From: a virus
Virus record (IMG/VR): IMGVR_UViG_3300037146_000068
Location: 1 to 32,839 of that record
Reading direction: 5' to 3' (one strand)
Length of the DNA: 32,839 nucleotides
Part shown: positions 3 to 32,839 of the stretch, piece by piece
Layout: the number at the start of each line of letters is the position of its first letter
Position numbering within the stretch: position 1 is the first letter of the stretch
Program-made: the position numbers and the translations under genes
Notes under the pieces: generated by a model
Database searches by the model: none
What the model was told of the DNA's origin: nothing
The model's input: the letters and a program-made list of their open reading frames with translations, nothing else

Positions 3-920
3 TTTAATGCCGGTGGTTTCTGGGTGCTTAACAGCGGAACGACGACTAGCGCCATTGGCAACAAAGCCTATGCGAACAATTCTACCGGACAGATTTCGTT
101 CGGCGTTACCGGTTCGCCTCCGACTTCCGGCTCCGCGACTTCCGCGACTGTCGTTAAGAATATTTCCGCATCAACCGGCGCAGCAATCCCGGCAACAGGC
201 CCTTCGTTCACTGGTTCGATTGCAGGGCAGACATTGACTGTCACGGCAATCGCTTCCGGCACGGTACTTGGCGCAGGCCAAGTGATTTCCGGCGGGCCTA
301 CAGCGAATCCTGTCGATCCGAACACGACGATTACCGGTTTTGTCAGCGGCACAAACGGCGGCGTCGGTGTCTATACCGTCAATATTTCGCAAAACGTCGC
401 TTCCGGCACGATCACGGCTTCGGGCGGCTGCATGACGCTAACCGGCGCAAACACTTCCGGCATCTTCGCTGTCGGGAATGCATTATCCGTAGCCGCAAGC
501 GGTTCGTTGACTGCCGGGACAACGATTACAGCGTTGATATCGGCAACTGCGGGCGGCGCCGGCACTTACCTGCTTAATCAGCCTGCCGCAACGGCTGTCA
601 CTGCCGGAACGATCACATCGACTAATACCTCGCTGCTAACGGTCGATTCTTCTTCGACGGGGACGTGGGCGATAAACGACCAGCTGACTGGCGGCGCAAA
701 CATCCCTTCGGCTGCGCCGTATTCGTACATTTTGGCGACGGGCGCGACGAACCCGAACTTGACCGGTCTTGGCGGCGCAGGAACATATCTTGTGTCGCAA
801 TCGTACACGTTCGCGTCGGGAACAGTCACTGTCGATATTGGCGTCGAAACGAAATGGGTTGCAAGTTCAATCGGTGCGCCGGGTGAACTTGTCAAGATGA
901 CAAGTTATCTCAACGGCTAA
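3..920 (+). CDS. Capsid cement/decoration protein, C-terminal part (5' truncated)
   Basis: The frame is open from the left edge of the window, so the start lies outside; a GTG at 24 is internal. The first visible residues (FNAGGFWVLNSG, then a GNKAYANNSTGQISFG stretch) resemble the C-terminal half of small phage structural cement proteins (Gp24-like), which sit on the outer capsid surface and stabilise it. Its place directly before the major capsid gene fits. After about 35 residues of cement-like sequence the protein continues with three copies of a Gly/Thr/Ser-rich beta-type module (213-416, 426-617, 627-833), then returns to cement-like sequence (ETKWVASSIGAPGELVKMTS) at the C-terminus. 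The modules therefore interrupt the cement fold near its end. Cement identity is by recognition; the module function is unknown. Confidence 0.7.
   Translation, partial: FNAGGFWVLNSGTTTSAIGNKAYANNSTGQISFGVTGSPPTSGSATSATVVKNISASTGAAIPATGPSFTGSIAGQTLTVTAIASGTVLGAGQVISGGPTANPVDPNTTITGFVSGTNGGVGVYTVNISQNVASGTITASGGCMTLTGANTSGIFAVGNALSVAASGSLTAGTTITALISATAGGAGTYLLNQPAATAVTAGTITSTNTSLLTVDSSSTGTWAINDQLTGGANIPSAAPYSYILATGATNPNLTGLGGAGTYLVSQSYTFASGTVTVDIGVETKWVASSIGAPGELVKMTSYLNG
213..416 (+). repeat. Dispersed module copy A1 (in cement protein)
   Basis: In-frame copy of the pattern GSIxGxTLTVxxIxSGTVxxGQVISG - TTITxxxSGTxGGxGxYTV - SQxVASGTI. The same pattern recurs in three other virion genes of this window. 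This copy has a longer middle (TANPVDPN). Confidence 0.75.
426..617 (+). repeat. Dispersed module copy A2 (in cement protein)
   Basis: A diverged copy directly after A1. It keeps TAGTTITALISATAGGAGTY and the closing AGTIT, but the opening [10 protein letters not shown] part is degraded to GCMTLTGANTSGIFAVGN. Confidence 0.6.
627..833 (+). repeat. Dispersed module copy A3 (in cement protein)
   Basis: The most diverged copy in this gene. It keeps LLTVDSSSTGTWAINDQLTGG, GLGGAGTYLVSQ and the closing ASGTVTV. Confidence 0.5.
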
Positions 921-3631: not shown

Positions 3632-4014
3632 TGAATCTGCATAGTATTGCTGCCGGATATATCTCTGCGGTAAATCCGCCATTGCTATGCCAGCTGCAAC
3701 CGTCGAACGGCTACACGGTTGCGGAAGACGGCACGCAAGTGCCGAGCTATGGAAACTGTGTCGATATTTTTTGCCAGGTGCAGGCGCTGCAATACAACGA
3801 TTTGATGCAAACGAATGGATTGAATATCCAGGGGCGCAGGCTTGCCGCCTATATTTTTGGAGACTGGGAAGGCGTCGTTCGTAGCGAGAATAAAGGCGGC
3901 GATCTTGTAACGCTCCCAGACGGATCGGTATGGCTTTGCGCGATGGTGTTAGAGCCTTGGGCGCTTTCTGCTGGATGGACTAAAATTTGTTTAACGCTTC
4001 AAAACGGGAGTTGA
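3631..4014 (+). CDS. Hypothetical head-tail joining protein
   Basis: A 127-residue protein whose ATG overlaps the previous stop (TAATG), so translation is probably coupled. It starts with [17 protein letters not shown] and contains a beta-rich middle ([19 protein letters not shown]) and a C-terminal [26 protein letters not shown]. Genes with this beginning (short protein starting 'LHxIAxGxIxAVNP') are common between gpG-like and terminator genes in myophages, but I know of no proven function. A neck or stopper role is inferred from order only. Confidence 0.65.
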
Positions 4015-4015
4015 C

Positions 4016-4729
4016 ATGTCGATCTCCCTAAGCATTACGGAAACGCAAATTTTCACGACCCTAAGAAATTTTCTGATTTCAATCTTACCGACAGGAACGC
4101 CTGTTATTCGCGCTCAAACGAACCGCGTTCCCGAACCGGCAAACACAAATTTCGTTACGATGACGCCGCTGTTCCAAGAGCGGATGGCAACGAACATCGA
4201 GGGGTTAGTAGAAACATTGTTTGCCGGTTCGATCAGCGGAACAACGCTGACGATATCAAGCATAACGACAGGCACTGTCGCAATTGGATCGCAGATTTAC
4301 GGCCCTAACGTCGCGGCAGGCACGATTATTACAGCGCTAGGAACCGGAACAGGCGGCACTGGCACGTACACGGTAAATAATTCGCAGAGCGTCGCTGGCA
4401 GCACGATGCAAGCAGGAACATCGCAAGTTGAGCAAACAACGCAAGTGACAATTCAGCTTGATGTTCATGGTCCTGCAAGCGCAGATAACGCGCAAATCAT
4501 CTCGACCCTATTTCGAGATCAATACGGAACGAATTTTTTCGAGATGAGCGGATTTAATCTTGACGCGCTTTACACAAGCGATCCGAAACAAATGCCGTTT
4601 ATCAACGGCGAACAGCAATTTGAGGAACGGTGGACGATAGATGTCATGCTAGAGGCGAACGCTATCGTAACCATTCCTCAGCAATTTGCGATTGCGTTGG
4701 GGCCTGTCGTATTGCACGATGTCGAGTGA
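4016..4729 (+). CDS. Tail/neck terminator protein, gp12-like, with module insertion
   Basis: A 237-residue protein. The N-terminal part ([18 protein letters not shown], then [23 protein letters not shown]) and the C-terminal part ([25 protein letters not shown]-like region, [21 protein letters not shown]) match the phage neck terminator (LIC_12616-like) family, which caps the tail. Residues about 71-133 are a copy of the dispersed module found in other virion genes. It falls between the '[12 protein letters not shown]' and '[11 protein letters not shown]' strands, where family members normally run on directly. I infer a surface-loop insertion that leaves the core fold intact. Confidence 0.7.
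4226..4414 (+). repeat. Dispersed module copy B (in tail terminator)
   Basis: A near-consensus copy: [60 protein letters not shown]. At DNA level the first 29 bases match copy D1 (14254) at 26 positions. A 53-base stretch near its end matches copy C (sheath) at about 45 positions, counted by eye. Confidence 0.8.
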
Positions 4730-4791: not shown

Positions 4792-6552
4792 ATGGCAGCA
4801 TCGATTCCAGCTTCGTTTTTTGCGAATGTCAACACTGCTGTAATAAGCGCAGGCGGCGCGGGAATCAATCTTAGCGGATTGTTTCTGACGAATAGCAGCC
4901 GCATTCCTATCGGTCAAGTGTTAACTTTTTCTTCTGCCGCGAATGTCGGGGCGTATTTTGGATTGTCGTCGAACGAATTCAATCAATCCGAGGTGTATTT
5001 CGCCGGAAACACAGGATCGTTTCAGAAACCTGCTGCGCTTCTTTTCGCGCAATACAACACAGTCGCCACTCCTGCATGGCTACGTGGCGGCAATGTGTCG
5101 TCGTTGACTTCCGCGCAGTTGGAAGCGCTGTCCGGCACGTTGATGCTGGAAGTGAATGGCGTTTGGAAAACATCCAGCGCGATCAATTTGAGTTCTTACG
5201 GAACTTTTTCCGCTGCTGCTGCGTATATCCAATCGGAATTTGCCGCGTTCGTTGGCACTGTAACTTACGACAGCGTTTCCGGCGGTTTTCTTTTTACGAC
5301 GACTGCTACCGGCGCAAGCGAAACGATTACGACTGCGATAAGCGGCACGGCGACCTCGACGACCAGCACGACGACCGGAACGGTATTAACAATTTCCGGC
5401 ACGGTTGTCGGCACGTATCACGTTGGCGATGTCGTGACGGGAACGGACGGCACGAATTCGTTGCCTGTCGGAACGACAATTACCGCGCTAGGAACTGGCA
5501 CAGGCGGCGCTGGCACTTACACGATCAGCGCAGCAGCTACTCCGAGTAATTTGGCGTCTAGCGCTGTCGATGCGTTCGGGCCTTTGGGCGCGTTCACGGT
5601 CGGTCTTGGATTGACAACCGCGACAGGCGCGATTGTGTCGGCTGGCGCTGCCGCTCCGACGTCTTCGACGCCAAATGCGTTTATGACGGCGTTGGCACAG
5701 CAAACGTCGAATTGGGTTTCTTTCACCACGTTGTTCGATCCAGATGGCGGTTCCGGCAACACGATAAAGCAAGAATTCGCTGCATGGGTAACGCTTCAAG
5801 ACAATCAATTCGCTTATGTTGCGTGGGACACCGACATCACCCCTACCGAATCGACCGACGCAGCATCGTCGCTCGGACAAATCCTAAAAGCGAATGGCAA
5901 TTCGGGGACGATCCTTATTTATGAGCCGTCAGATTTAAGCTTGGCCGCGTTTGAAATGGGATTTATCGCGTCGATAGATCAGACGCAAACGAACGGAAAT
6001 TCTTCCGCAGCGTATAAATCTCAGGCAGGGATTTCACCGGCGGTCAGCAGCGAAACTGTGTTAGCGAATTTGATTGCAAACGGTTACAACACTTATGTTG
6101 CTGCCGCAAATCGCACGAACCAATGGCAGTTCTTCTATCCGCAAACGATCACGGGAACGTTCGGCACGATTGAACGTTACATCAATCAAATCATCATGCA
6201 AGCTGGATTCCAAACCGGAATGATGACGCTGCTGACTACAGAAACCGCTATCCCTTATGTGCCCGCCGGATATGCGCTAATAGAAGCTTACTTGCAGCCC
6301 ACGATTGACGCGGCCTTGACGTTTGGCGCGATTCAGCCCGGCGTGAACTTGTCTGCTGCGCAAATCGCAACGGTAAATAGTCAGGCCGGAAAGAACATTG
6401 GAACGACATTGGCAACTCGCGGTTGGTATTTGCAAGTGCTTGATCCAGGCTCTGTCGTGCGCGGCAATGGCGGAAGTCCATCCATTACTTTTTGGTGGAC
6501 GGACGGCGGGAGCGTCTTGAATCTAAACATGTCCGCCTTCGACGTGGAATAA
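4792..6552 (+). CDS. Tail sheath protein (DUF3383-like) with module insertion
   Basis: A 586-residue protein with ATG behind GGAGAA. The N-terminus (SIPASFFANVNTAVISAGG, then LSGLFLTNSSRIP and VGAYFGLSSNEF) and later parts (QTSNWVSFTTLFDPDG, NQFAYVAWDTD, YNTYVAAANRTNQWQFF, the C-terminal SPSITFWWTDGGSVLNLNMS) match the DUF3383 sheath family of contractile tails. The sheath subunits polymerise around the tube and contract. At about residues 194-257 a copy of the dispersed module is inserted in the domain that normally projects outward (between the SETITTA and LGLTTATGAIVS segments). The tube gene follows directly, as expected. Confidence 0.85.
   Translation: MAASIPASFFANVNTAVISAGGAGINLSGLFLTNSSRIPIGQVLTFSSAANVGAYFGLSSNEFNQSEVYFAGNTGSFQKPAALLFAQYNTVATPAWLRGGNVSSLTSAQLEALSGTLMLEVNGVWKTSSAINLSSYGTFSAAAAYIQSEFAAFVGTVTYDSVSGGFLFTTTATGASETITTAISGTATSTTSTTTGTVLTISGTVVGTYHVGDVVTGTDGTNSLPVGTTITALGTGTGGAGTYTISAAATPSNLASSAVDAFGPLGAFTVGLGLTTATGAIVSAGAAAPTSSTPNAFMTALAQQTSNWVSFTTLFDPDGGSGNTIKQEFAAWVTLQDNQFAYVAWDTDITPTESTDAASSLGQILKANGNSGTILIYEPSDLSLAAFEMGFIASIDQTQTNGNSSAAYKSQAGISPAVSSETVLANLIANGYNTYVAAANRTNQWQFFYPQTITGTFGTIERYINQIIMQAGFQTGMMTLLTTETAIPYVPAGYALIEAYLQPTIDAALTFGAIQPGVNLSAAQIATVNSQAGKNIGTTLATRGWYLQVLDPGSVVRGNGGSPSITFWWTDGGSVLNLNMSAFDVE
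5371..5562 (+). repeat. Dispersed module copy C (in tail sheath)
   Basis: Contains [40 protein letters not shown] and TISAAATPSNLASS. It lacks the opening GSISGTT, which is replaced by a Thr/Ser run (TATSTTSTTTGTV). The 3' half is about 85% identical to copy B in DNA by eye. Confidence 0.75.
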
Positions 6553-13516: not shown

Positions 13517-15150
13517 TGACAACGAACGTCCCTCCAGTTTCGCTCGGAGCGAACGGCTACATTGCGCCTGCGGAATCGGCAATCCTCGCAGGCGTGCAAG
13601 CCGACATCAATTCCGCATTCGGCAATGGGTTGAATTTTACTTCGACCGCAACGCCGCAAACGCAATTATCGGTGAGCGAGACTGCAATCATCGGAAACAC
13701 AAACGACTTACTCCTCGCCCTTTTTAATGGCGTCGATCCAGCTTTCGCTTCAGGCCGCATGCAGGACGCCATCGGGCGGATTTACTACATGACGCGCATC
13801 CCCGCAGCTAGCACGGTCGTTCAATGCACTTGCTCAGGCTTAAGTGCAACAATTCCTGTTGGCGCGCTAGCGCAAGATGTGTCTGGAAATACTTATATGT
13901 GCATGCAAGCGGGAACACTTCCTGGCGGCCCGGGAGGTGGCAGCATCGTTTTGCCGTTCGCAAACGTCGCGCAAGGCCCGATTCCGTGCCCGGAAAATAC
14001 ATTGACGACAATCGTTTCCGGCGTCAGCGGATGGGACACAATCAATAATCCAGCGGATGGCGCAGAAGGATCGCTAGTCGAAAGCAGATCGCAGTTCGAA
14101 ACGCGCCGGTTCAATTCCGTCGCAGCCAATTCACTCAACACTCCCCAATCCGTTCTCGGGACGATTCTTAATGTTGCAAATGTGTTGGGTGCTTATGTTC
14201 AAGATAATTTTTACAATTATCCTTACGCTGTCAATCCGGTATCGACGATTACGGGATCGATCAGCGGAACATCGTTGACGATCGATGCTGTTCTCTCTGG
14301 GACTGTCGCTATAGGGCAAGTTATTAGCGGGCCTGGGGTAACATACGGCACAACGATTGTTAGCGGTTCCAGCAGTCCTTATACGGTTTCCGTGAGCCAA
14401 ACGACGGCGGCGGCCATTCCGCTTCAGCTTGGAGGGGTAAGCATTGAAGCGAATACGCTTTATATAAGCGTTGCGGGGGGCACGGCGCAAGATATCGCCA
14501 ATGCGATTTGGAGCAAAAAACCGCCTGGTTGCGGACTTCAAGGCAATACGACAGAAACGGTTTATGATACAAGCTACGTCTATAGCACGCCAGGAATTCC
14601 TTATGCGATCTCGTTCGAAAACCCGCCTGATGTCGAAATATACTTTAACGTCAGTATTTATCCGTCGCCTGCCGTTCCGTCCAACGCAAGCACGTTGATT
14701 CAAAATGCGATTTTGAACGCTTTCATCGGCGGCGATGGCGGTTTGCGCATGCAAATGGAAACGTTAATTTTAACCAGTCGATATTACCAGGGGATTTACG
14801 CGCTCGGCTCGTGGGCATTAATTACCGGATTGACAATTGGAAGTTCTGCCGCGCCCGCATTTGCGATAACCGCATCAATCGCAACGACCGTTTTAACAGT
14901 GACAGCGACTGGCGGCGCGCTGGCTGTTGGGCAAGTTTTGATCGGAACAGGCGTAACGGTGGGGACGTATATTAAAGCGCAGTTGACAGGTTCCTCTGGC
15001 TCAACGGGCACGTACACGGTATCGAGTTCCCAAACCGTTGGAAGCGAATCGATGAACGTTTTGGGAATGAATGCGACAAGCATTCAAATGCTGATAAATC
15101 AAATGCCGGTGACGGCAGCGGCCAACATTAATGTGACGACTGCGACATGA
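13516..15150 (+). CDS. Baseplate J-like wedge protein with two module insertions
   Basis: A 544-residue protein. Features of the family are the N-terminal [36 protein letters not shown], the [17 protein letters not shown] segment, [18 protein letters not shown], and the middle [20 protein letters not shown] with [16 protein letters not shown]-like proteins form the wedge ring of contractile baseplates. Two copies of the dispersed module interrupt it, at residues 247-303 (between VNPVSTIT and LGGVSI) and 452-514 (near the C-terminus, before [17 protein letters not shown]). Without them the protein would be close to the usual ~420 residues. Confidence 0.8.
14254..14424 (+). repeat. Dispersed module copy D1 (in baseplate J)
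   Basis: [38 protein letters not shown], then [19 protein letters not shown]. It lacks the GTGGxGTY segment of other copies. The 5' 29 bases match copy B at 26 positions. Confidence 0.75.
14869..15057 (+). repeat. Dispersed module copy D2 (in baseplate J)
   Basis: [59 protein letters not shown]. Confidence 0.75.
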
Positions 15151-23844: not shown

Positions 23845-24080
23845 GCGCCAGCGCAGCCCACACTGGAGGAGCGGCCCTCGTCACCATTCAGCTAGCGTCC
23901 GTCATCGATTGGATCGCGAACACGCTTTGTGGCATGCATATGCCGAACGATATAGAAATGGCTCTCGCAGCGTTAATCGTTACTTTTGCGCATTTTCTTG
24001 CAAATTCACTTTCTAGTGTTAAAATGAATCTTTCTAACACGAAAGTCGATGATGACAACAACATTCCTGCAAAGCAATGA
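23841..24080 (+). CDS. Holin candidate
   Basis: A 79-residue protein; start at 23841 overlaps the endolysin stop, and the longer in-frame version from 23748 lies inside the endolysin gene. Two hydrophobic stretches (AALVTIQLASVIDWIANTLC and IEMALAALIVTFAHFLANSL), a short turn (GMHMPND), and a polar charged tail (KVDDDNNIPAKQ) give a holin-like layout. Placement next to the endolysin supports this. The first hydrophobic stretch is only moderately hydrophobic, so a one-TM (class III-like) or two-TM (class II) topology are both possible. Confidence 0.65.
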   Translation: MSASAAHTGGAALVTIQLASVIDWIANTLCGMHMPNDIEMALAALIVTFAHFLANSLSSVKMNLSNTKVDDDNNIPAKQ

Positions 24081-25359
24081 TTCGCTAATTCCATTCACCC
24101 CTCAGCCTGTTCTGACTCAGGGGAATGTCGGGGATTGCGTTGAGTGCGCGACAACCAATCTAATTGCTCTGACGACATCCTTATATGGCCCTGTTTTTAA
24201 TTCAAACGCGGAATTTCAATACAACCTGAACCTGCAAGCGCAAGGTCAGCTAGGCGTAGACGCTGGAACGAATGTTTCCGAGGCGTTATCGCTATTGCAG
24301 ACGTCCGGCTTGACTCAAAATACAACAATCCAATATGGTGATTACACGACTGCGCCTGGCGCTACCGATCTTGCCGACGCGGCAACGCATACTGTAACCG
24401 GAATCACACCGCTAACAGTGCTAACAGGGAGCGCTGACAATTGGTTAGCGAATGAAATCGCTGGGTATTTAAACCAAATGAAACCGCTGCTCATGGAGTT
24501 TGAAGCTTGCGCAGGCTTCTTTGCCGAAGAAACTATTTCAAATTTGGCAAACCAAAACGGCATGGATACGGGCGCAGCCGCAGGGTTGCATGAGGTAGCG
24601 ATTGTTGCGGTCAACACCAATACGGACATGCTGACAGTCGAATCGTGGGGATCGGCTTATGGAGCTAAGGGTTTGTTCCAAATATCTTTGAGCAGTTTCG
24701 ATGGCGCAGGGGCGATTAATTTACTGGCAATCGACGCGATAAATGGATTTAACGGCATTGATCTCACACAAAACTCTAACACGCAAGCCGTATCTGCCGC
24801 ATTTGTCGCGATCCTTGGGCGCGCATCGGCTTTGTCCGGTATGACGGCTTTCTCGGCTGCGCTGAATAACGGCGCAATGACCGTTGCGAACATGTGCGAT
24901 TCCATCTTTGCGTCCTCGGAGGCGCAAGCCGATTTCGCCGGGATGACCAATACGCAAATTATTAATCAACTTTACCAAAATGTATTAGGTCGGAACGCGC
25001 TACCGGCAGGCATGACGGCGCTGTTAGGAGAGCTTGCAGGAGGCGCTACTATAGGCGCTGTGGCCGCGCAAATTATCACGGCTGGCGAAGCTCTCGGAAA
25101 TTGGAGTAACACATTCGAGGGCGGCGTATGGTCGGGAACGAATAACGATCCTAACATGATGACGGAATCGGGGATATTCCAAAATAAAATACAGGTTGCG
25201 GAAGATGCGGCGATTGCCATACAAGCTGGACAAGGAAACAACGCAACTCTTCACAACATTTTGACGACGGTTACGGCGGACCAATCGACGATTCTCGCCA
25301 GTCTCGTCGGAGTGCCGCAGCAGCTTCAAGGCGCGTCGCATGTAGCGATTCACTCTTAA
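24049..25359 (+). CDS. Papain-like cysteine peptidase fused to DUF4214-type repeats
   Basis: A 436-residue protein overlapping the holin gene by 32 bases; a second ATG at 24052 is equally possible. Residues 24-36, QGNVGDCVECATT, match the papain active site Q-G-x-x-G-x-C: Gln24 as oxyanion-hole residue and Cys30 as nucleophile. His181 (GLHEVAIVAV) aligns with the catalytic His, and ESWGSAYGAKGLFQI with papain NSWG.xWGExGY, but the usual Asn is Glu198. Residues about 246-350 contain two DUF4214-like units (AFVAILGRASALSGMTAF and LYQNVLGRNALPAGMTALL), a domain of secreted and surface proteins. No signal peptide. Role unknown: lysis aid, processing enzyme or virion-associated protease. Confidence 0.65.
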   Translation: MMTTTFLQSNDSLIPFTPQPVLTQGNVGDCVECATTNLIALTTSLYGPVFNSNAEFQYNLNLQAQGQLGVDAGTNVSEALSLLQTSGLTQNTTIQYGDYTTAPGATDLADAATHTVTGITPLTVLTGSADNWLANEIAGYLNQMKPLLMEFEACAGFFAEETISNLANQNGMDTGAAAGLHEVAIVAVNTNTDMLTVESWGSAYGAKGLFQISLSSFDGAGAINLLAIDAINGFNGIDLTQNSNTQAVSAAFVAILGRASALSGMTAFSAALNNGAMTVANMCDSIFASSEAQADFAGMTNTQIINQLYQNVLGRNALPAGMTALLGELAGGATIGAVAAQIITAGEALGNWSNTFEGGVWSGTNNDPNMMTESGIFQNKIQVAEDAAIAIQAGQGNNATLHNILTTVTADQSTILASLVGVPQQLQGASHVAIHS

Positions 25360-26247: not shown

Positions 26248-26904
26248 ATGAACATCTCGAAAAAGGAAGCCGCATTCCTTGCATGCGTCTGCGCGTATCA
26301 AGGCAAGCAAATCGGAGGTTTCGATCAAGTGCTGTCTATCGGGCCGGACTTTGTATATCTGAAGCAGATGGACAATCTTCTTACCGCAACGATTCTCGGC
26401 ACTGTCGATTGGTCGATGTGGGAAAATAATTTTAAAATCGAGAACGCAGATCATCCGACGTTCGGCCCAATGCATAAAGGATTCTTGGAATCGGCAACGG
26501 CGATGACTGCCACGCTGAAGCCGATCTTTTCGGCGCACTTGGCTGCGGGCGGCAAAATCTCTCTACAAGGTCATTCAAGAGGCGGTAGTCTAGCGGACAT
26601 TGTGGCAAGCGAATGCGCGCTAGACGGGATTGTCATCGACCAATTGTTCCTATTCGAGGCAGCATGCGTCGGGACGAAACAATATTCGAACTGGGCTTGC
26701 AGCATGAGGACGGTGGATTTATCAACGACAAACGGCCCCGATCCAGTGCCAGCGTCAATGCTTGTTGGGTTGACTGAAAGAATTCCTACCTACCCGAGGG
26801 TCGAGTTGTACTGCGCGCCGGGCGGAATTGGAGAGTTAAACTTAATGAAATGGCACGCCGGTTCGACAATCTATACCGGCGTGGAAGAAATGTATCCGGC
26901 ATAA
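26248..26904 (+). CDS. Lipase class 3-like alpha/beta hydrolase
   Basis: A 218-residue protein. The nucleophile elbow G-H-S-R-G-G (Ser110) follows a beta strand (AGGKISLQGHS), as in class 3 lipases (GHSLGG). The upstream GPMHKGFLESA matches the 'xxHxGF' motif of the family. Asp165 (NGPDPVPAS) and His203 (MKWHAGS) complete a plausible Ser-Asp-His triad at expected spacing. No signal peptide is present, so it would need the lysis pathway or act inside the cell. Ester substrates cannot be deduced. It sits after a terminator and ends flush against the convergent early genes, so it may be expressed by read-through or be an added gene. Confidence 0.75.
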   Translation: MNISKKEAAFLACVCAYQGKQIGGFDQVLSIGPDFVYLKQMDNLLTATILGTVDWSMWENNFKIENADHPTFGPMHKGFLESATAMTATLKPIFSAHLAAGGKISLQGHSRGGSLADIVASECALDGIVIDQLFLFEAACVGTKQYSNWACSMRTVDLSTTNGPDPVPASMLVGLTERIPTYPRVELYCAPGGIGELNLMKWHAGSTIYTGVEEMYPA

Positions 26905-27095: not shown

Positions 27096-27986
27096 TCAAA
27101 GATTAGATTCGTATTCAATGATGCATTTTGCGACAAACTTCGCGAGATTGACTGGAACTGCATTTCCGATCATCTGCTCTCTGTCCTTTTTATTTCCCAG
27201 AAATTTGAAGTGTGACGGGAACGTTTGCACTCTAGCGCGTTCTTCCGTAGTCAATGCCCGCAGCCCGGTTAATTCAGCAAAGTCTTTCTTATGCTTTTTA
27301 TACCCAGGCGCAACAGGCCTGTTTGTGCCGCGAATTGTCGGAGCCGGTTCGTCAATCGAAAATATCGCTCTATTCGAATAATTTCGCGGATGCACGTAAT
27401 AATGATCGATTCCGAGTTCATTCCCAAGATAGTCTCGAACAGTCATTTCGCTTTTCGATTGACGACTTGCCAAAGTTGAAGAAAGAAATTCATCGCATTC
27501 GCCTAATTTCCCAATACAAAAGAGACGTTTTCTCTTTTGTGGAACTCCACACAAACTTGCGTTCAGAACTTTCATCGTGAGACCATAACCAGCTTCACGA
27601 AATACTCTTTCGGCAGTTTCAAAGGCAGCACTGTTTTGTGTTCCGCTTACATTTTCCATGACAAAAATCATAGGTTTAATTTTCGCTATGATTTTCGAAT
27701 ACGCGACGGTGAGGCTTGCACGATCTCCTTCAACCCGTTTACCAGCAAGCGAAAAGTCTTGGCACGGCGGGCTGCCGATAATTATGTCCGGTCGGAACGA
27801 CGAGATAATCTTAACAGATGCGTCAATATCGGATAAATCTTGTTTAAAAATTGGGTGAGCGAAATTTTCTGAATACACGGCAATCGCTGCGCCCCACCAA
27901 TCAAACGCAGCGTCAACGCTTAAGCCTGCGCCTTCAAACCCGAGGGACGAGCCTCCACACCCCGAAAATAAATCGACAATTTTCAT
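27096..27986 (-). CDS. C5-cytosine DNA methyltransferase (orphan)
   Basis: A 296-residue protein with all key motifs: I, DLFSGCGG (residues 5-12); IV, GSPPCQDFS with catalytic Cys75; VI, ENVSG (111-115); VIII, QKRKR (150-154); a target recognition region at roughly 165-255; and X, GNAVPVN near the end. It transfers a methyl group from S-adenosylmethionine to C5 of cytosine. No restriction partner is next to it, so it most likely protects phage DNA from host enzymes by copying a host mark. Somewhat shorter than typical (about 330), with a compact recognition region; specificity cannot be read from sequence. Strong AAGGAG site. Confidence 0.92.
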   Translation of the reverse strand: MKIVDLFSGCGGSSLGFEGAGLSVDAAFDWWGAAIAVYSENFAHPIFKQDLSDIDASVKIISSFRPDIIIGSPPCQDFSLAGKRVEGDRASLTVAYSKIIAKIKPMIFVMENVSGTQNSAAFETAERVFREAGYGLTMKVLNASLCGVPQKRKRLFCIGKLGECDEFLSSTLASRQSKSEMTVRDYLGNELGIDHYYVHPRNYSNRAIFSIDEPAPTIRGTNRPVAPGYKKHKKDFAELTGLRALTTEERARVQTFPSHFKFLGNKKDREQMIGNAVPVNLAKFVAKCIIEYESNL

Positions 27987-29108: not shown

Positions 29109-29960
29109 TTAAAATTTTTCAGGTTCGACGTCGATAGACCCTTCCGTAGACATCTCATATTTCGCCGCAACATTTCCTTTATTTACAACATCCCTAAACG
29201 CTTTGGCGGCTTCGTATATTTCAGGTCTGGCCACTTTACCTATGATGTCGAATTTAATGCCGAACCAACTGCCCTTATCATTCGACTCGCCGATAGATGT
29301 CGCCCGAACGATGCTTGCAAACGATGGCGGAGTGTAAATCCCGTTAGCGCCTTTCAATTTTACGCTTGCCAATCCCGCAATCAACATCTTCGACTTCTTA
29401 ATTTGCGTCTTCGACATCGATATTAACGCATTCGTCCAACCGCCAGTTTCTTCGTCCAGCAGCAATACGTAATGATTTCGCGTATCGACAATTATGTCGC
29501 ATTCTTTCGGGTTCACCGATCCGTCCGGCTTTGGAACATACAAAGATCGTTCAAATTCGACAAGTTTTCCTTCGTTGTGAAGCCGCGTCACAGCTTCCGG
29601 CAACAGCTCTCCCTTAAATCCTGCGCCAGGAACGCCTTTCGGTGTCCATTGAACATACACCCGTCGAAAAGCGCATTGCACAATCTGGACGCCTTTTTTA
29701 CCGTCAAACATTCGACCGGTAACGTTTTCGAAAAACATGCCTGCTTTTGCGCCTTCAATCGCTTGACCTAGCGCTTCGTCTACTTGCGGACTTCCTTTTT
29801 GCAAAACTCCCAAAAACGGAAGAGCGACAGATTCCGCCGTTACATTTTCAAATCCGCCGCCTTGATCTTCTTCGAACGAAAGTTCCTGAGCCTCTTTTGT
29901 TGAAATAGGATGCGACTTTACTTCAACTACTGCTGTGTTTTCGTGTTTGGCTTTAGCCAT
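29109..29960 (-). CDS. Early phage protein, possibly single-strand DNA-binding
   Basis: A 283-residue protein. After a charged, probably disordered N-terminus, VALPFLGVLQKGSPQVDE, GAKAGMFFENVTGRMFDGKK, GVQIVQCAFRRVYVQWTPKG and a helical SMSKTQIKKSKMLIAGLASV follow, then FGIKFDIIGKVARPEIYEAA. The same plan is found in conserved proteins of many phage replication regions. The acidic end (EGSIDVEPEKF) and beta-rich core would suit an OB-type single-strand DNA-binding protein, but I cannot demonstrate it. GGAG precedes the start. It is the last gene before the strong terminator. Confidence 0.6.
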   Translation of the reverse strand: MAKAKHENTAVVEVKSHPISTKEAQELSFEEDQGGGFENVTAESVALPFLGVLQKGSPQVDEALGQAIEGAKAGMFFENVTGRMFDGKKGVQIVQCAFRRVYVQWTPKGVPGAGFKGELLPEAVTRLHNEGKLVEFERSLYVPKPDGSVNPKECDIIVDTRNHYVLLLDEETGGWTNALISMSKTQIKKSKMLIAGLASVKLKGANGIYTPPSFASIVRATSIGESNDKGSWFGIKFDIIGKVARPEIYEAAKAFRDVVNKGNVAAKYEMSTEGSIDVEPEKF

Positions 29961-30009: not shown

Positions 30010-30558
30010 TTACTTCTTTGCCTTTGGCATGGTAATTTTCGCCTTGTTGAACTCGAACACCCCGAACAATTCGTCCGGGAATGGGTCTCGCTCATTCGCT
30101 TCCGGGTTGCTTGCCGCCCATTCTTTTCGTTCTTTGATGAACGATTTTAGCGTTTGCGCGTGAACGCCTTCGGTCAGTTCTGGCGTGCGAGCGAATTTTT
30201 CCACGATCTCTTCCGCAATTTCTTTTGCCGCCGCGATTTCATCCTTTCCGAATGACAATTCGAGATTCGTTTTTATAATCCCGCCAAAACCATGATCTTT
30301 GAGCCATCTATGCGCGCTTTCGCGTCTATTTGCTGGAATCGAACAAACAAGATCGAGAACCACTTCCACGGACGCTCCGTTGTTCAAAGATATTTTACTT
30401 ATTTCAAGTTCAGTCATAAGCGTAGGTAAATCTTCGCGTTCCAGTTTTTGATGCGCGATTTTCGCGGATTTTAAGTCGGCTTCAAGCTGCGCAACTTTCT
30501 CTTCGGCTTGCATCAGCTGATTCGCCATATCGGTTATTCTGTTTAATGCGTCGCTCAT
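30010..30558 (-). CDS. Coiled-coil early protein (182 aa), unknown
   Basis: The N-terminal 50 residues form a clear coiled coil (ITDMANQLMQAEEKVAQLEA, DLKSAKIAHQKLEREDLPTL). It is followed by a globular domain (SISLNNGASVEVV-like strand, ANRRESAHRWLKDHGFGGII, KTNLELSFGKDEIAAAKEIA) and a basic end (FEFNKAKITMPKAKK). Genes of this plan recur in phage replication regions next to single-strand-binding-type and MazG-like genes. No enzymatic motif is seen. GGGAGAG precedes the ATG. Confidence 0.6.
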   Translation of the reverse strand: MSDALNRITDMANQLMQAEEKVAQLEADLKSAKIAHQKLEREDLPTLMTELEISKISLNNGASVEVVLDLVCSIPANRRESAHRWLKDHGFGGIIKTNLELSFGKDEIAAAKEIAEEIVEKFARTPELTEGVHAQTLKSFIKERKEWAASNPEANERDPFPDELFGVFEFNKAKITMPKAKK

Positions 30559-30591: not shown

Positions 30592-31104
30592 TCAAGTTGT
30601 TTTACGACCGTATTTTAGTTTTGCGTTATGCTTTTGAAGAAATTCGGCTGCGTCTTGTTGCCCTGGCGTCAGAAAAGCCGTCTCAAGAAGCAATTTTATG
30701 GCAGGTTCCGGCTTCCAGTAGTGTGGCCCTTTTTGAACCTTGCCACGCTCGTCGTAAATCGGCTTGCCATCGGCCCCCAATTTTGAAAAATTCGATTGCA
30801 TGATAATCGCCAAAATCCGATCCAGCGGCAAACCGAATTTGGCCATTTCGGATGCGCAATATACCTGAATATCGCCCAACAAATCGGCCAGCATCGTCAA
30901 GATTTCCAGCTCCGGCAACGGGAGAGCAGCGGTATCGATGATCTCGACAATCTCATCGATCTCATTCAATTCTTCGGACAAAATACTTTTAAAAGCCTTC
31001 AAACGCTCACCCGCGTACACGCCGACATCCAACGACGGCTTGGCATTGACTGGCAATTTATACATGACGTTAAATTTTTTGATATCGTCTGAAAATGAAC
31101 TCAT
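30592..31104 (-). CDS. MazG-like nucleotide pyrophosphohydrolase
   Basis: A 170-residue protein with the all-alpha NTP pyrophosphatase pattern: ERLKAFKSILSEELNEIDEI supplies E44-E45-x2-E48, and EILTMLADLLGDIQVYC supplies D74-x3-D78 for metal binding. The following SNFSKLGADGKPIYDERGKV, QKGPHYWKPEPAI segment is typical of phage-type MazG-like proteins. Such enzymes hydrolyse nucleoside triphosphates to monophosphates and may clean up modified nucleotides or blunt host stress signalling during infection. Substrate is unknown. Confidence 0.7.
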   Translation of the reverse strand: MSSFSDDIKKFNVMYKLPVNAKPSLDVGVYAGERLKAFKSILSEELNEIDEIVEIIDTAALPLPELEILTMLADLLGDIQVYCASEMAKFGLPLDRILAIIMQSNFSKLGADGKPIYDERGKVQKGPHYWKPEPAIKLLLETAFLTPGQQDAAEFLQKHNAKLKYGRKTT

Positions 31105-31141: not shown

Positions 31142-32122
31142 TTAAATTAAACCTAAATCTTTTTGAATAGCAGCGATGAACAACGTCGAAAGATTTTGAT
31201 CTTCGAAATTTTCGCCGAGTGCCACGGCCTTGTCATAGGTCAACCCGCGTTTGCATCCGGCATAATACAGCCCGTCTACGGATTTCCACAGCGAGTATTG
31301 TTTGAAAAGCAACAGTTTTCCCGGCACTCCATACATTTTTAAGTCGGCAGGCAACGGATGGTCGTAGCCTCTTAAAAAAGCGTCGCCGCCAATCGTGCAG
31401 CTCTGGGGTAATTGGTGGTCGTAGCCCTCCAAAAAAGCGCTGCCGCCAATCGTGCAGCCCTGGGGCAATTGGTGGCCGTAGCCCGTCAAATCGGCGCTGC
31501 CGCTAATCGTGCAGCTCTGGGGTAATTGGTGGTCGTAGCCCTCCAAAATAGCGCTTCCGCCAATCGTGCAGCCCTGGGGCAATTGGTGGTCGTAGCCTGT
31601 CAAATAGGCGTCGCCGTCTATCGTGCAGCCCTGGGGCAATGGGTGGTTGTAGCCTCTTAAAAAAGCGCTGCCGCCTATCGTGCAATCCTGGGGTAATTGG
31701 TGGCCGTAGCCCGTCAAATAGGCGTCGCCGCCAATCGTGCAGCCCTGCGGTAATTGGTGGCCGTAGCTCTCCAAATAGGCCGTCCCGCCTATCGTGCAGC
31801 CCTGGGGCAATTGGTGATCGTAGCCTCTCAACCAAGCAGCGCCGCCAATCGTGCAGCCCTGCGGCAATTGGTGGCCGTAGCCCGTCAAATAGACGCTGCC
31901 GCCAATCGTGCAGCCCTGGGGCAATTGGTGGTCGTAGCCTCTTAAAAAAGCATCGCCGCCAATCGTGCAGCCCGGCGACAACGGGTGGTCGTAGCCTCTT
32001 AAAAAAGCGCTGCCGCCAATCGTGCAGCCCTGGGGCAATTGGCAGGCGTAGCCTCTTAAAAAAGCGCTGCCGCCAATCGTGCAGCCCTGCGGCAATGGCA
32101 GATTGTTTTTAAGCTCAATCAT
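31142..32122 (-). CDS. 19-residue repeat (solenoid-like) protein with cysteine ladder
   Basis: A 326-residue protein; AAGGAATGAA precedes the ATG. After seven residues come 13 consecutive 19-residue units (about 9-255) with consensus QLPQGCTIGGSAFLRGYDH. Every unit keeps Cys-Thr-Ile at the same place (Cys14 + 19n), as well as Leu and Gly-Tyr. The variable positions are S/D/T/A after GG, F/Y/W/I/D before Leu, and R/T/E after it. The pattern resembles 'LPEGLTVGGxLxLxG' beta-solenoid repeats of bacterial proteins. The C-terminal 70 residues (LKMYGVPGKLLLFKQYSLWK, GLYYAGCKRGLTYDKAVALG) are a non-repeat domain. Its place between helicase and MazG-like genes suggests an early host-interaction role; function unknown. 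Confidence 0.75.
   Translation of the reverse strand: MIELKNNLPLPQGCTIGGSAFLRGYACQLPQGCTIGGSAFLRGYDHPLSPGCTIGGDAFLRGYDHQLPQGCTIGGSVYLTGYGHQLPQGCTIGGAAWLRGYDHQLPQGCTIGGTAYLESYGHQLPQGCTIGGDAYLTGYGHQLPQDCTIGGSAFLRGYNHPLPQGCTIDGDAYLTGYDHQLPQGCTIGGSAILEGYDHQLPQSCTISGSADLTGYGHQLPQGCTIGGSAFLEGYDHQLPQSCTIGGDAFLRGYDHPLPADLKMYGVPGKLLLFKQYSLWKSVDGLYYAGCKRGLTYDKAVALGENFEDQNLSTLFIAAIQKDLGLI
31358..32098 (-). repeat. 13 tandem 57-bp coding repeats
   Basis: The units are in frame without spacers, and highly alike in DNA (for example GCCGCCAATCGTGCAGCCCT recurs in most). Differences fall in a few codons, giving a few unit types (FLRGYDH, YLTGYGH, ILEGYDH) in mixed order. Confidence 0.95.
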
Positions 32123-32177
32123 TTCATTCCTTCAGTTTTTTAATCAAAATACGATAAATTGAAAACGTTTAACAACA

Positions 32178-32839
32178 TTAATCGCCTAAAACGACTTTAG
32201 CCAAAGTCTCTTTCCTTCGCAACGCTTTCGTAATTTGCTCATCAATCGTTCCTGTCGCGATCAAATCGATATACACAACACTATTTTTTGTGCCGATTCT
32301 GTGCGCTCTATCTTCGCTTTGTTTTCTAGTTTCAAAATTGAAATCGTTTGAGAAATAAATAACTAGCTCCGCAGCGGTTAGTGTTAATCCAATCCCGCCG
32401 CTTTGCGGCTGTCCGAGAAACACGTCCGCATTGCCGCACTGAAACGAATCGACCGCAAGCTCTCTGTCCTCTTTATTTACGTCGCCGTGGTACTCGACGA
32501 CTTTTCTGCCAACCTTTTTTAGCGCAAGCGAAATCGAGGACAACTCTTCCTTAAATCGTGCCCACACAATCATTTTTTCGGGATAATCCTCAACGATTTC
32601 GAGTAAACTTTCCAAACGCGGATTCGCGTCAGCGACGTAATGTATGCCGCCACCGGCAACGGTCGGAAGATGTAAAAAACCTGACGTGATTTGCTGCAAT
32701 TTTACAAGTGCAGACAGCTCTGAAACCGACAAAACGTCCCCGGAATCAATATTGATTCGACACTCCGACTGCATTAAATCATACGCGGCGCGTTGCTTTG
32801 CTCCTAACTCAAAATAATGGTTTTGATAGATCTTTTCCG
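32178..32839 (-). CDS. SNF2-family helicase, C-terminal part (truncated at window edge)
   Basis: The frame is open to the right edge, giving 219 C-terminal residues; an internal ATG at 32774 is not the start. The second RecA-like domain is clear: MIVWARFKEELSSISLAL, VEYHGDVNKEDRELAVDSF, DVFLGQPQSGGIGLTLTAAE (motif V) and QSEDRAHRIGTKNSVVYIDL with the motif VI arginine finger region. It ends in TIDEQITKALRRKETLAKVV, typical of SNF2-type phage helicases. These ATP-driven DNA translocases act in phage replication or recombination. The ATP-binding domain must lie beyond 32839. Confidence 0.85.
   Translation of the reverse strand, partial: EKIYQNHYFELGAKQRAAYDLMQSECRINIDSGDVLSVSELSALVKLQQITSGFLHLPTVAGGGIHYVADANPRLESLLEIVEDYPEKMIVWARFKEELSSISLALKKVGRKVVEYHGDVNKEDRELAVDSFQCGNADVFLGQPQSGGIGLTLTAAELVIYFSNDFNFETRKQSEDRAHRIGTKNSVVYIDLIATGTIDEQITKALRRKETLAKVVLGD

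What the first reader, a model, noticed from the sequence alone, without database searches (positions are those of the whole stretch)
31142..32122. Early phage protein of 13 x 19-residue solenoid-like units with an invariant cysteine ladder
All 13 units keep Cys-Thr-Ile at the same place, which in a beta-solenoid would stack 13 cysteines in a line, an unusual feature for a cytoplasmic protein. It could bind metal, stack thiols or react with oxidants. DNA units are almost identical and a few unit types are shuffled along the array, so it is expanding or recombining now. Pentapeptide-repeat solenoids can mimic DNA, but this one is not strongly acidic, so another target is likely.
Basis: partly seen in the sequence, partly recalled or inferred. 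Interest (0 to 1): 0.75.

Follow-up and report, generated by a model that had tools for sequence, protein, structure and literature searches.

The report
Phage repeat protein with variable face
A bacteriophage carries several copies of a coil-shaped repeat protein whose cysteines most likely sit inside as packing, while three outward-facing residues per repeat vary strongly, as expected of a fast-evolving binding surface.

Summary
The ORF is real: 326 aa, 13 units of 19 aa, Cys-Thr-Ile in 13 of 13. The predicted fold is an ordered solenoid (pLDDT about 83 over the repeats), closest to leucine-rich-repeat (LRR) structures. The cysteine is probably not the interesting part: in relatives that position is Leu/Ile/Val/Phe (76 of 76 distinct units), so it is most likely a core-packing position, changed together with neighbouring core residues. 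One other phage shares the Cys type. 'DNA units almost identical' is wrong here (mean identity 81%).

What stands out is the variation. Positions 6, 8 and 10 of the unit, which should point outward on one strand, carry the excess of amino-acid change in this phage (4 of 4 arrays) and in relatives (16 of 18 arrays). In five relatives' arrays, 60-bp units are nearly identical except in codons 6, 8 and 10 (75 of 78 differences), and unit number and order differ between close relatives. This resembles the variable residues of TAL-effector repeats on an LRR-like scaffold. The phage has at least four such genes, all among replication genes. I read it as an early binding protein under diversifying selection, probably against a host target; the target is unknown.

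The parts
31142..32122 (-). repeat protein gene P0001, 326 aa plus stop
32128..32132 (-). AAGGA, ribosome-binding-site-like, 5 nt before the ATG
   Evidence: sequence printed
32084..32122 (-). N-terminal 13 residues; near copy (MIELRNN) opens a second array gene after DNA polymerase III alpha
31343..32083 (-). 13 units of 19 residues, C-T-I-G-G-x-A-x-L-x-G-Y; residues 6, 8, 10 variable
31145..31354 (-). C-terminal domain of about 70 residues; 93.9% DNA identity to that of paralogue P0004; weak model (three short strands, two helices)
32178..32839 (-). DNA helicase, upstream neighbour in the same direction, cut by the window end
30592..31104 (-). nucleotide pyrophosphohydrolase-like (MazG-like) neighbour
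   Evidence: phrog_671 E 8e-20
30010..30558 (-). Pam3 gp33-like protein (DUF7307)
29109..29960 (-). Pam3 gp34-like protein; matches in 489 phage records, 361 of them Pseudomonas phages

Best explanation
An early-region, cytoplasmic, LRR-like solenoid that works as a binding protein. Each 19-residue unit is one coil. Residues 1, 3, 7, 9, 12, 14 and 16 (C, I, A, L, Y, H, L) pack the core, so the 13 cysteines form a buried ladder that replaces the leucine ladder of the wider family (inferred from alignment and strand pattern, not measured on coordinates). Residues 6, 8 and 10 alternate with core residues on one strand and form an outward face; this face carries the excess of amino-acid change, and in relatives it evolves by duplication, loss and shuffling of units. 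The phage keeps at least four such genes with different faces. Most likely use (inferred): binding and blocking or redirecting a host protein, such as a defence or DNA-processing factor, during early infection.
For: Fold: ordered solenoid, period 19; VIA-align Z 14.7, rmsd 3.0 over 167 residues to the LRR chain 8z5u, Z 14.9 (rmsd 6.8) to a Leptospira LRR protein; sequence match to 8z5u E 2.9e-6, E 2e-28 for an E. coli relative. Core position: Leu in 113 of 113 units of relatives by one pattern; L69, I5, V1, F1 of 76 distinct units by another; both patterns admitted Cys. Face: pN 0.49 at 6/8/10 against pS 0.33 overall, ratio 1.51 (bootstrap 1.27-1.76), in 37 units; outside 6/8/10/13 pN 0.067 against pS 0.285; 4 of 4 own arrays and, in relatives, 16 of 18 arrays exceed the other unconstrained positions and 15 of 18 exceed pS. 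Near-identical units differing in codons 6/8/10: 75 of 78 differences in 5 arrays. Turnover: L024 and L029 are 100% identical in the C-terminal-domain DNA and 1.5 kb downstream but have 5 and 3 units with different residues. Context: next to helicase, polymerase III alpha and ParB-like genes; relatives next to exo/RecT and exoX/AAA ATPase.
Against: No target, no expression data. Foldseek itself gives only E 1.2e-3 for 8z5u and no PDB match under 0.001. P0001 has no Pfam LRR match. The model used 3 related sequences from one phage, and side-chain directions were not measured. pN/pS among repeat units is blurred by shared ancestry and exchange between units. 2 of 18 relatives' arrays do not show the face effect against other positions and 3 of 18 not against pS. 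PADLOC has no match. No change of an array was seen between two samples of this phage.
Confidence: 0.5

Rival explanations
1. The cysteine ladder is the active feature: stacked thiols, with His/Cys at position 14, bind metal or respond to oxidants.
For: Cys1 in 37 of 37 units although Thr2 and others vary; position 14 is His 33 or Cys 4 of 37 and nothing else, an exchange that metal sites tolerate.
Against: The second Cys-type phage has Phe at 14 in 3 of 3 full units; relatives have Leu at 1 and Ile at 14; both positions behave as core slots; Cys comes with Ala7 and Tyr12, as expected of repacking.
Confidence: 0.1
2. A modular recognition code: each unit reads one element of a linear polymer or of a repetitive partner through residues 6, 8 and 10, as TAL effector repeats read bases.
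For: Near-identical units with three variable codons and small alphabets (W/S/Y, D/Y/H, R/E/S) in relatives; CGC and GAA at codon 10 differ in all three bases without intermediates in L022, L024, L025 and L033; variable array length.
Against: No ligand known; no code demonstrated; the window phage uses a wider alphabet; length varies between near-identical prophages, which a fixed target would not favour.
Confidence: 0.15
3. Unit variation arises by slippage and recombination without functional demand; the arrays are weakly selected passengers in the early region.
For: Repeats slip and recombine; the gene is rare in E. coli (5 of 5,426 genomes) and scattered.
Against: Neutral change would hit synonymous and other positions as often; 75 of 78 differences fall in 3 of 20 codons in 5 arrays; core positions are conserved.
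Confidence: 0.12
4. A diversity-generating retroelement rewrites the variable codons.
For: Replacement changes concentrated in a few codons.
Against: No reverse transcriptase (PF00078) in 2 of 2 records (window, 62-kb contig of the same phage), with 3 of 14 control genomes ringing; variant codons such as TGG do not fit adenine-directed change of AAY codons (the rule is recalled).
Confidence: 0.02
5. A virion or receptor-binding part.
For: Beta-solenoids are common in tail fibres; a Lactobacillus phage antireceptor has a weak match to a relative.
Against: Lies on the strand of replication genes, apart from the structural genes on the plus strand; relatives lie in early operons of lambdoid prophages.
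Confidence: 0.06

Closest known systems
LRR protein of the polar flagellar motor structure (PDB 8z5u chain 0)
   Same: Similar unit pattern with LP, a hydrophobic residue where P0001 has Cys, and GxLxL; best fold and sequence match
   Different: Part of a flagellar motor; no Cys ladder; units not near-identical
YopM/SspH/SlrP-type bacterial LRR domains
   Same: LP-containing LRR units; the E. coli relative matches the SlrP chain E 7e-11 and SspH1 chains about 1e-3; fold rows 4ow2 and 4nkh
   Different: Those are secreted effectors; the phage genes are early-region genes with no ligase domain seen
FNIP/FGxxFN LRR proteins of the giant virus CroV
   Same: Viral LRR family with many paralogues and altered core spines (PMC9525666: abstract, introduction and first results read); fold row 7zal Z 10.6
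   Different: 22-residue units with Phe spines, eukaryotic host; no sequence match shown
TAL effector repeats
   Same: Near-identical repeats differing at a few residues (recalled, not compared by a tool)
   Different: Helical 34-residue units that bind DNA (recalled); no homology claimed
Pentapeptide-repeat proteins (MfpA, QnrB1, AlbG)
   Same: Beta-solenoid fold rows, Z 8.3-9.4
   Different: 19-residue period, not 5; lower Z than the LRR rows
Pfam DUF5649 (PF18886)
   Same: Edno5 relative matches at 24.2 bits (cut-off 25)
   Different: Below cut-off; P0001 does not match

Membership tests
Leucine-rich repeat (LRR) | LRR fold | tested here: inconclusive
   Top rows of VIA-align are LRR chains, Z 14.9 and 14.7, but the model rests on 3 sequences and Foldseek E is only 1.2e-3
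Leucine-rich repeat (LRR) | Significant match of the protein to a curated LRR profile | tested here: not met
   P0001: no LRR model at E 1. Relative L031 does match LRR_1, 29.0 bits against cut-off 20.6
Leucine-rich repeat (LRR) | LxxLxLxxN/CxL segment in each unit | tested here: not met
   Units read CTIGGxAxLxGYxH; relatives LxVGGxLxLxGTxI come nearer. Hence 'LRR-like', not LRR
Leucine-rich repeat (LRR) | Homology to a protein of solved LRR structure | tested here: met
   8z5u E 2.9e-6; E. coli relative E 2e-28
Pentapeptide repeat | Five-residue periodicity | tested here: not met
   Exact 19-residue period; no Pfam match
Diversity-generating retroelement target | Reverse transcriptase in the genome | tested here: inconclusive
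   None in 2 of 2 records searched, genome incomplete
Anti-defence proteins | Inhibits a host defence system | not testable with these tools
   Inferred from early location and diversified face only
Repeat-variable modular code (TALE-like) | Near-identical units differing at fixed positions | tested here: inconclusive
   Met in five arrays of relatives: 75 of 78 differences in codons 6, 8, 10. In P0001 itself units are 81% identical, so only the concentration of change is seen
Repeat-variable modular code (TALE-like) | One unit recognises one ligand element | not testable with these tools
   No ligand known

The most novel reading that the evidence does not exclude
Phages have their own modular recognition system: LRR-like arrays in which each near-identical coil carries a three-residue variable set (positions 6, 8, 10) that reads one step of a repetitive or linear target, with specificity changed by adding, losing and reordering units; the window phage carries at least four such readers on a cysteine-core version of the scaffold.
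Probability: 0.15. Interest if true: 0.9.

Novelty: new variant of a known kind. Interest (0 to 1): 0.6.

Why it matters
If the face binds a host factor, these arrays are a natural, rapidly re-sorted binder family encoded by phages, whose specificity might be read from three residues per unit. That would give a direct handle on what early phage proteins target and a compact scaffold for designed binders. The same data suggest that a striking feature (the cysteine ladder) is packing, while the informative signal is the variation beside it.

Tried and rejected
Pfam, NCBIfam and PADLOC scans of P0001 gave no accepted family; PHROG 2154 (unknown function) matches the repeats only. A plasmid search gave 4 records with about 23-25% identity, not followed. 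Homology of the C-terminal domain to that of the relatives: suggested by eye (W...AGC) but not supported by profile comparison (probability 0.6%). The C-terminal domain alone had no match in 50,697 phage records and only this phage in IMG/VR; its model is weak (pLDDT 61) and was not searched against structures. The genome collection held no Cys-type array. The pattern scans were mis-spaced by one base: one search spent one collection scan, and its one hit is unrelated. The corrected pattern (in the window) found 28 stretches in IMG/VR, of which 5 are true arrays, 4 of them this phage, and 23 are unrelated frames. Literature: papers were searched for PDB 8z5u, phage LRR solenoids, FNIP/CroV, flagellar-motor LRR (two), anti-defence LRR, LRRs in bacteria and phages, repeat-variable prophage LRR, hypervariable phage LRR and TALE-like phage LRR; no paper on this phage family appeared in those listings, in an open-licence library only. 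Of papers, only PMC9525666 was opened (part 1 of 6).

Dropped rows: of 42 relative loci (L004, L019-L059) scanned, 18 arrays in 17 loci had at least 4 in-register units and entered; the other 25 loci gave none. The search pattern constrained core positions, so their conservation is partly built in; positions 2, 4, 13, 15, 16, 19 and 20 were unconstrained and serve as the control. P0003's last Cys segment (CTIGGEIID) was dropped from 38, leaving 37. In one search, CP52E (same as LHM10-1) and L029 (no differences) were dropped from the 7 arrays; in ET791 at least one unit was missed by the pattern. The p-value printed treats differences as independent, which they are not, and is not used.

Full report
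What is there. The finding is an ORF on the minus strand, 31142-32122, of 326 residues. After 13 residues come 13 units of exactly 19 residues, each starting C-T-I (13 of 13), then a C-terminal part of about 70 residues. Mean pairwise DNA identity between units is 80.7% (61-96%), so the units are not almost identical. The protein is mildly acidic (pI 5.5).

Where it is. The window is a virus contig. The neighbours on the same strand are a DNA helicase, a MazG-like pyrophosphohydrolase and the Pam3-like gp33 and gp34; the gp34 homologue matches 489 phage records, 361 of them Pseudomonas phages. In the relative FoX7 the order is polymerase III alpha, hypothetical, helicase, two hypotheticals, gp34 homologue. 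The array gene lies among these replication genes.

More copies in the same phage. A 62-kb IMG/VR contig (G001) is 100% identical to window 1-31,996. It holds three more array genes: P0003 (10 full units) and P0004 (6 units) beside each other after a ParB-like gene, and an array opening MIELRNN directly after polymerase III alpha, cut by the contig end (8 full units). P0004 shares the C-terminal domain with P0001 (93.9% DNA identity). The ends of G001 overlap by exactly 99 bp inside an array, and the helicase segment of the window (32,125-32,839) has no match in G001 longer than 22 bases. The simplest reading is that the assembly of G001 jumped between two arrays through a shared stretch; the join in the window is open to the same doubt. 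A second sample (24-kb contig) is 99.99% identical over 7.1 kb including P0003, so no re-sorting was seen in this phage.

Fold and family. AlphaFold2 on three sequences gave a regular solenoid, pLDDT about 83 over the repeats, low in the C-terminal part. The best solved matches are LRR proteins: 4u08 (Z 14.9, rmsd 6.8) and 8z5u chain 0 (Z 14.7, rmsd 3.0 over 167), the latter called an LRR protein in a polar flagellar motor structure. Foldseek alone is weak (E 1.2e-3). In the viral library the best match is a phage protein named leucine-rich repeat (E 1e-9). By sequence P0001 matches 8z5u at E 2.9e-6. Edwardsiella phage Edno5 carries a clear relative with units LPDGLxVGGxLxLxGTxIxA, and 41 IMG/VR loci encode more. 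An E. coli relative matches 8z5u at E 2e-28 and the SlrP chain at 7e-11. P0001 itself fails the Pfam LRR models and the canonical LRR segment, so I call it LRR-like.

The cysteines. Cys1 of the unit aligns with Leu of LPDGL. In relatives it is Leu in 113 of 113 units by one pattern and Leu 69, Ile 5, Val 1, Phe 1 of 76 distinct units by another, both of which admitted Cys. In this phage Cys1 comes with Ala7 (Val in 2 units), Tyr12 and His or Cys14, where relatives have Leu7, Thr12 and Ile14, as expected if the core was repacked. One more phage contig (L077) has the Cys type, with Phe14, in front of a gene that looks to me like a chaperonin (by eye). No other Cys-type array was found in IMG/VR with that pattern, and none in the genome collection. 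That position 14 is His 33 or Cys 4 of 37 in this phage remains unexplained and keeps a metal reading alive at low probability.

The variable face. Over 37 units of the phage's four arrays, positions 6, 8 and 10 hold 55% of all nonsynonymous differences. Their pN is 0.49 against a pS of 0.33 over all positions (ratio 1.51, bootstrap over units 1.27-1.76); outside 6, 8, 10 and 13 pN is 0.067 and pS 0.285. Each of the four arrays shows it. In relatives, 16 of 18 arrays have higher pN at 6, 8, 10 than at other unconstrained positions, 15 of 18 higher than pS, and the pooled ratio is 1.97 (bootstrap over arrays 1.22-4.64).

Near-identical units in relatives. In L022, 16 units of 60 bp differ only in codons 6 and 10. 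In E. coli ET846 (complete genome) 14 units differ only in codons 6, 8 and 10, and a block of six units is duplicated. Over five arrays (ET846, ET791, LHM10-1, L022, L024) 75 of 78 differences from the array consensus fall in codons 6, 8, 10. Arg CGC and Glu GAA at codon 10 alternate with no intermediate in L022, L024, L025 and L033. L024 and L029 are identical in the C-terminal-domain DNA and in 1.5 kb downstream, yet have 5 and 3 units with different residues. The gene is rare in E. coli, 5 of 5,426 genomes by its 5' part, and in the four regions read it sits in lambdoid-type prophages between the repressor and exoX/AAA ATPase genes. In EBPR podovirus 1 it precedes RecT and exo.

How it most likely works. 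Shown: repeat scaffold, family, variable positions, paralogues, unit turnover in relatives, location among early genes. Inferred: the cysteines are buried; the variable positions form one face; the face binds a target; the target is a host factor, perhaps a defence or DNA-processing protein, which would explain diversification. Not known: the target. A unit-by-unit code, as in TAL effectors, is the boldest reading that the evidence leaves open. No reverse transcriptase was found, so a diversity-generating retroelement is unlikely.

Novelty. LRR-like phage proteins exist in databases, and viral LRR families with altered cores are published (PMC9525666, part 1 of 6 read). I found no paper on the variable positions of this phage family in ten searches of an open-licence library. 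I rate it a new variant of a known kind.

Noticed in passing
window 3-917, 4019-4726, 4795-6549, 13519-15147: Several structural-region proteins (including a DUF3383 protein and a neck terminator) share an inserted module like [46 protein letters not shown], twice in the last one; pairwise E down to 4e-13.
   Followed up: partly
window 26248-26904: Class 3 lipase-like protein (PF01764, E 8e-11), unusual cargo for a phage.
   Followed up: partly
window 24049-25359: Protein with DUF4214 (E 8e-13); its N-terminal half looks by eye like a cysteine peptidase.
   Followed up: partly
window 27096-27986: C5 cytosine DNA methyltransferase (PF00145, E 2e-66).
   Followed up: no
G001 ends (L002 start, L011 end): Exact 99-bp terminal overlap lies inside a repeat array, so apparent circularity of this 62-kb contig is probably an assembly effect; the helicase segment is missing.
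   Followed up: yes
L027:3370-4005 and 3989-4693: Two array genes in tandem in another virus contig: paralogues also arise in relatives.
   Followed up: no
L077:2-229: Second Cys-type array (LPEGCTIGGDAYLSGYGFA), cut by the contig start, followed by a chaperonin-like gene (by eye).
   Followed up: partly
all 37 units of the four arrays of the phage: Unit position 14 is only His (33) or Cys (4).
   Followed up: partly
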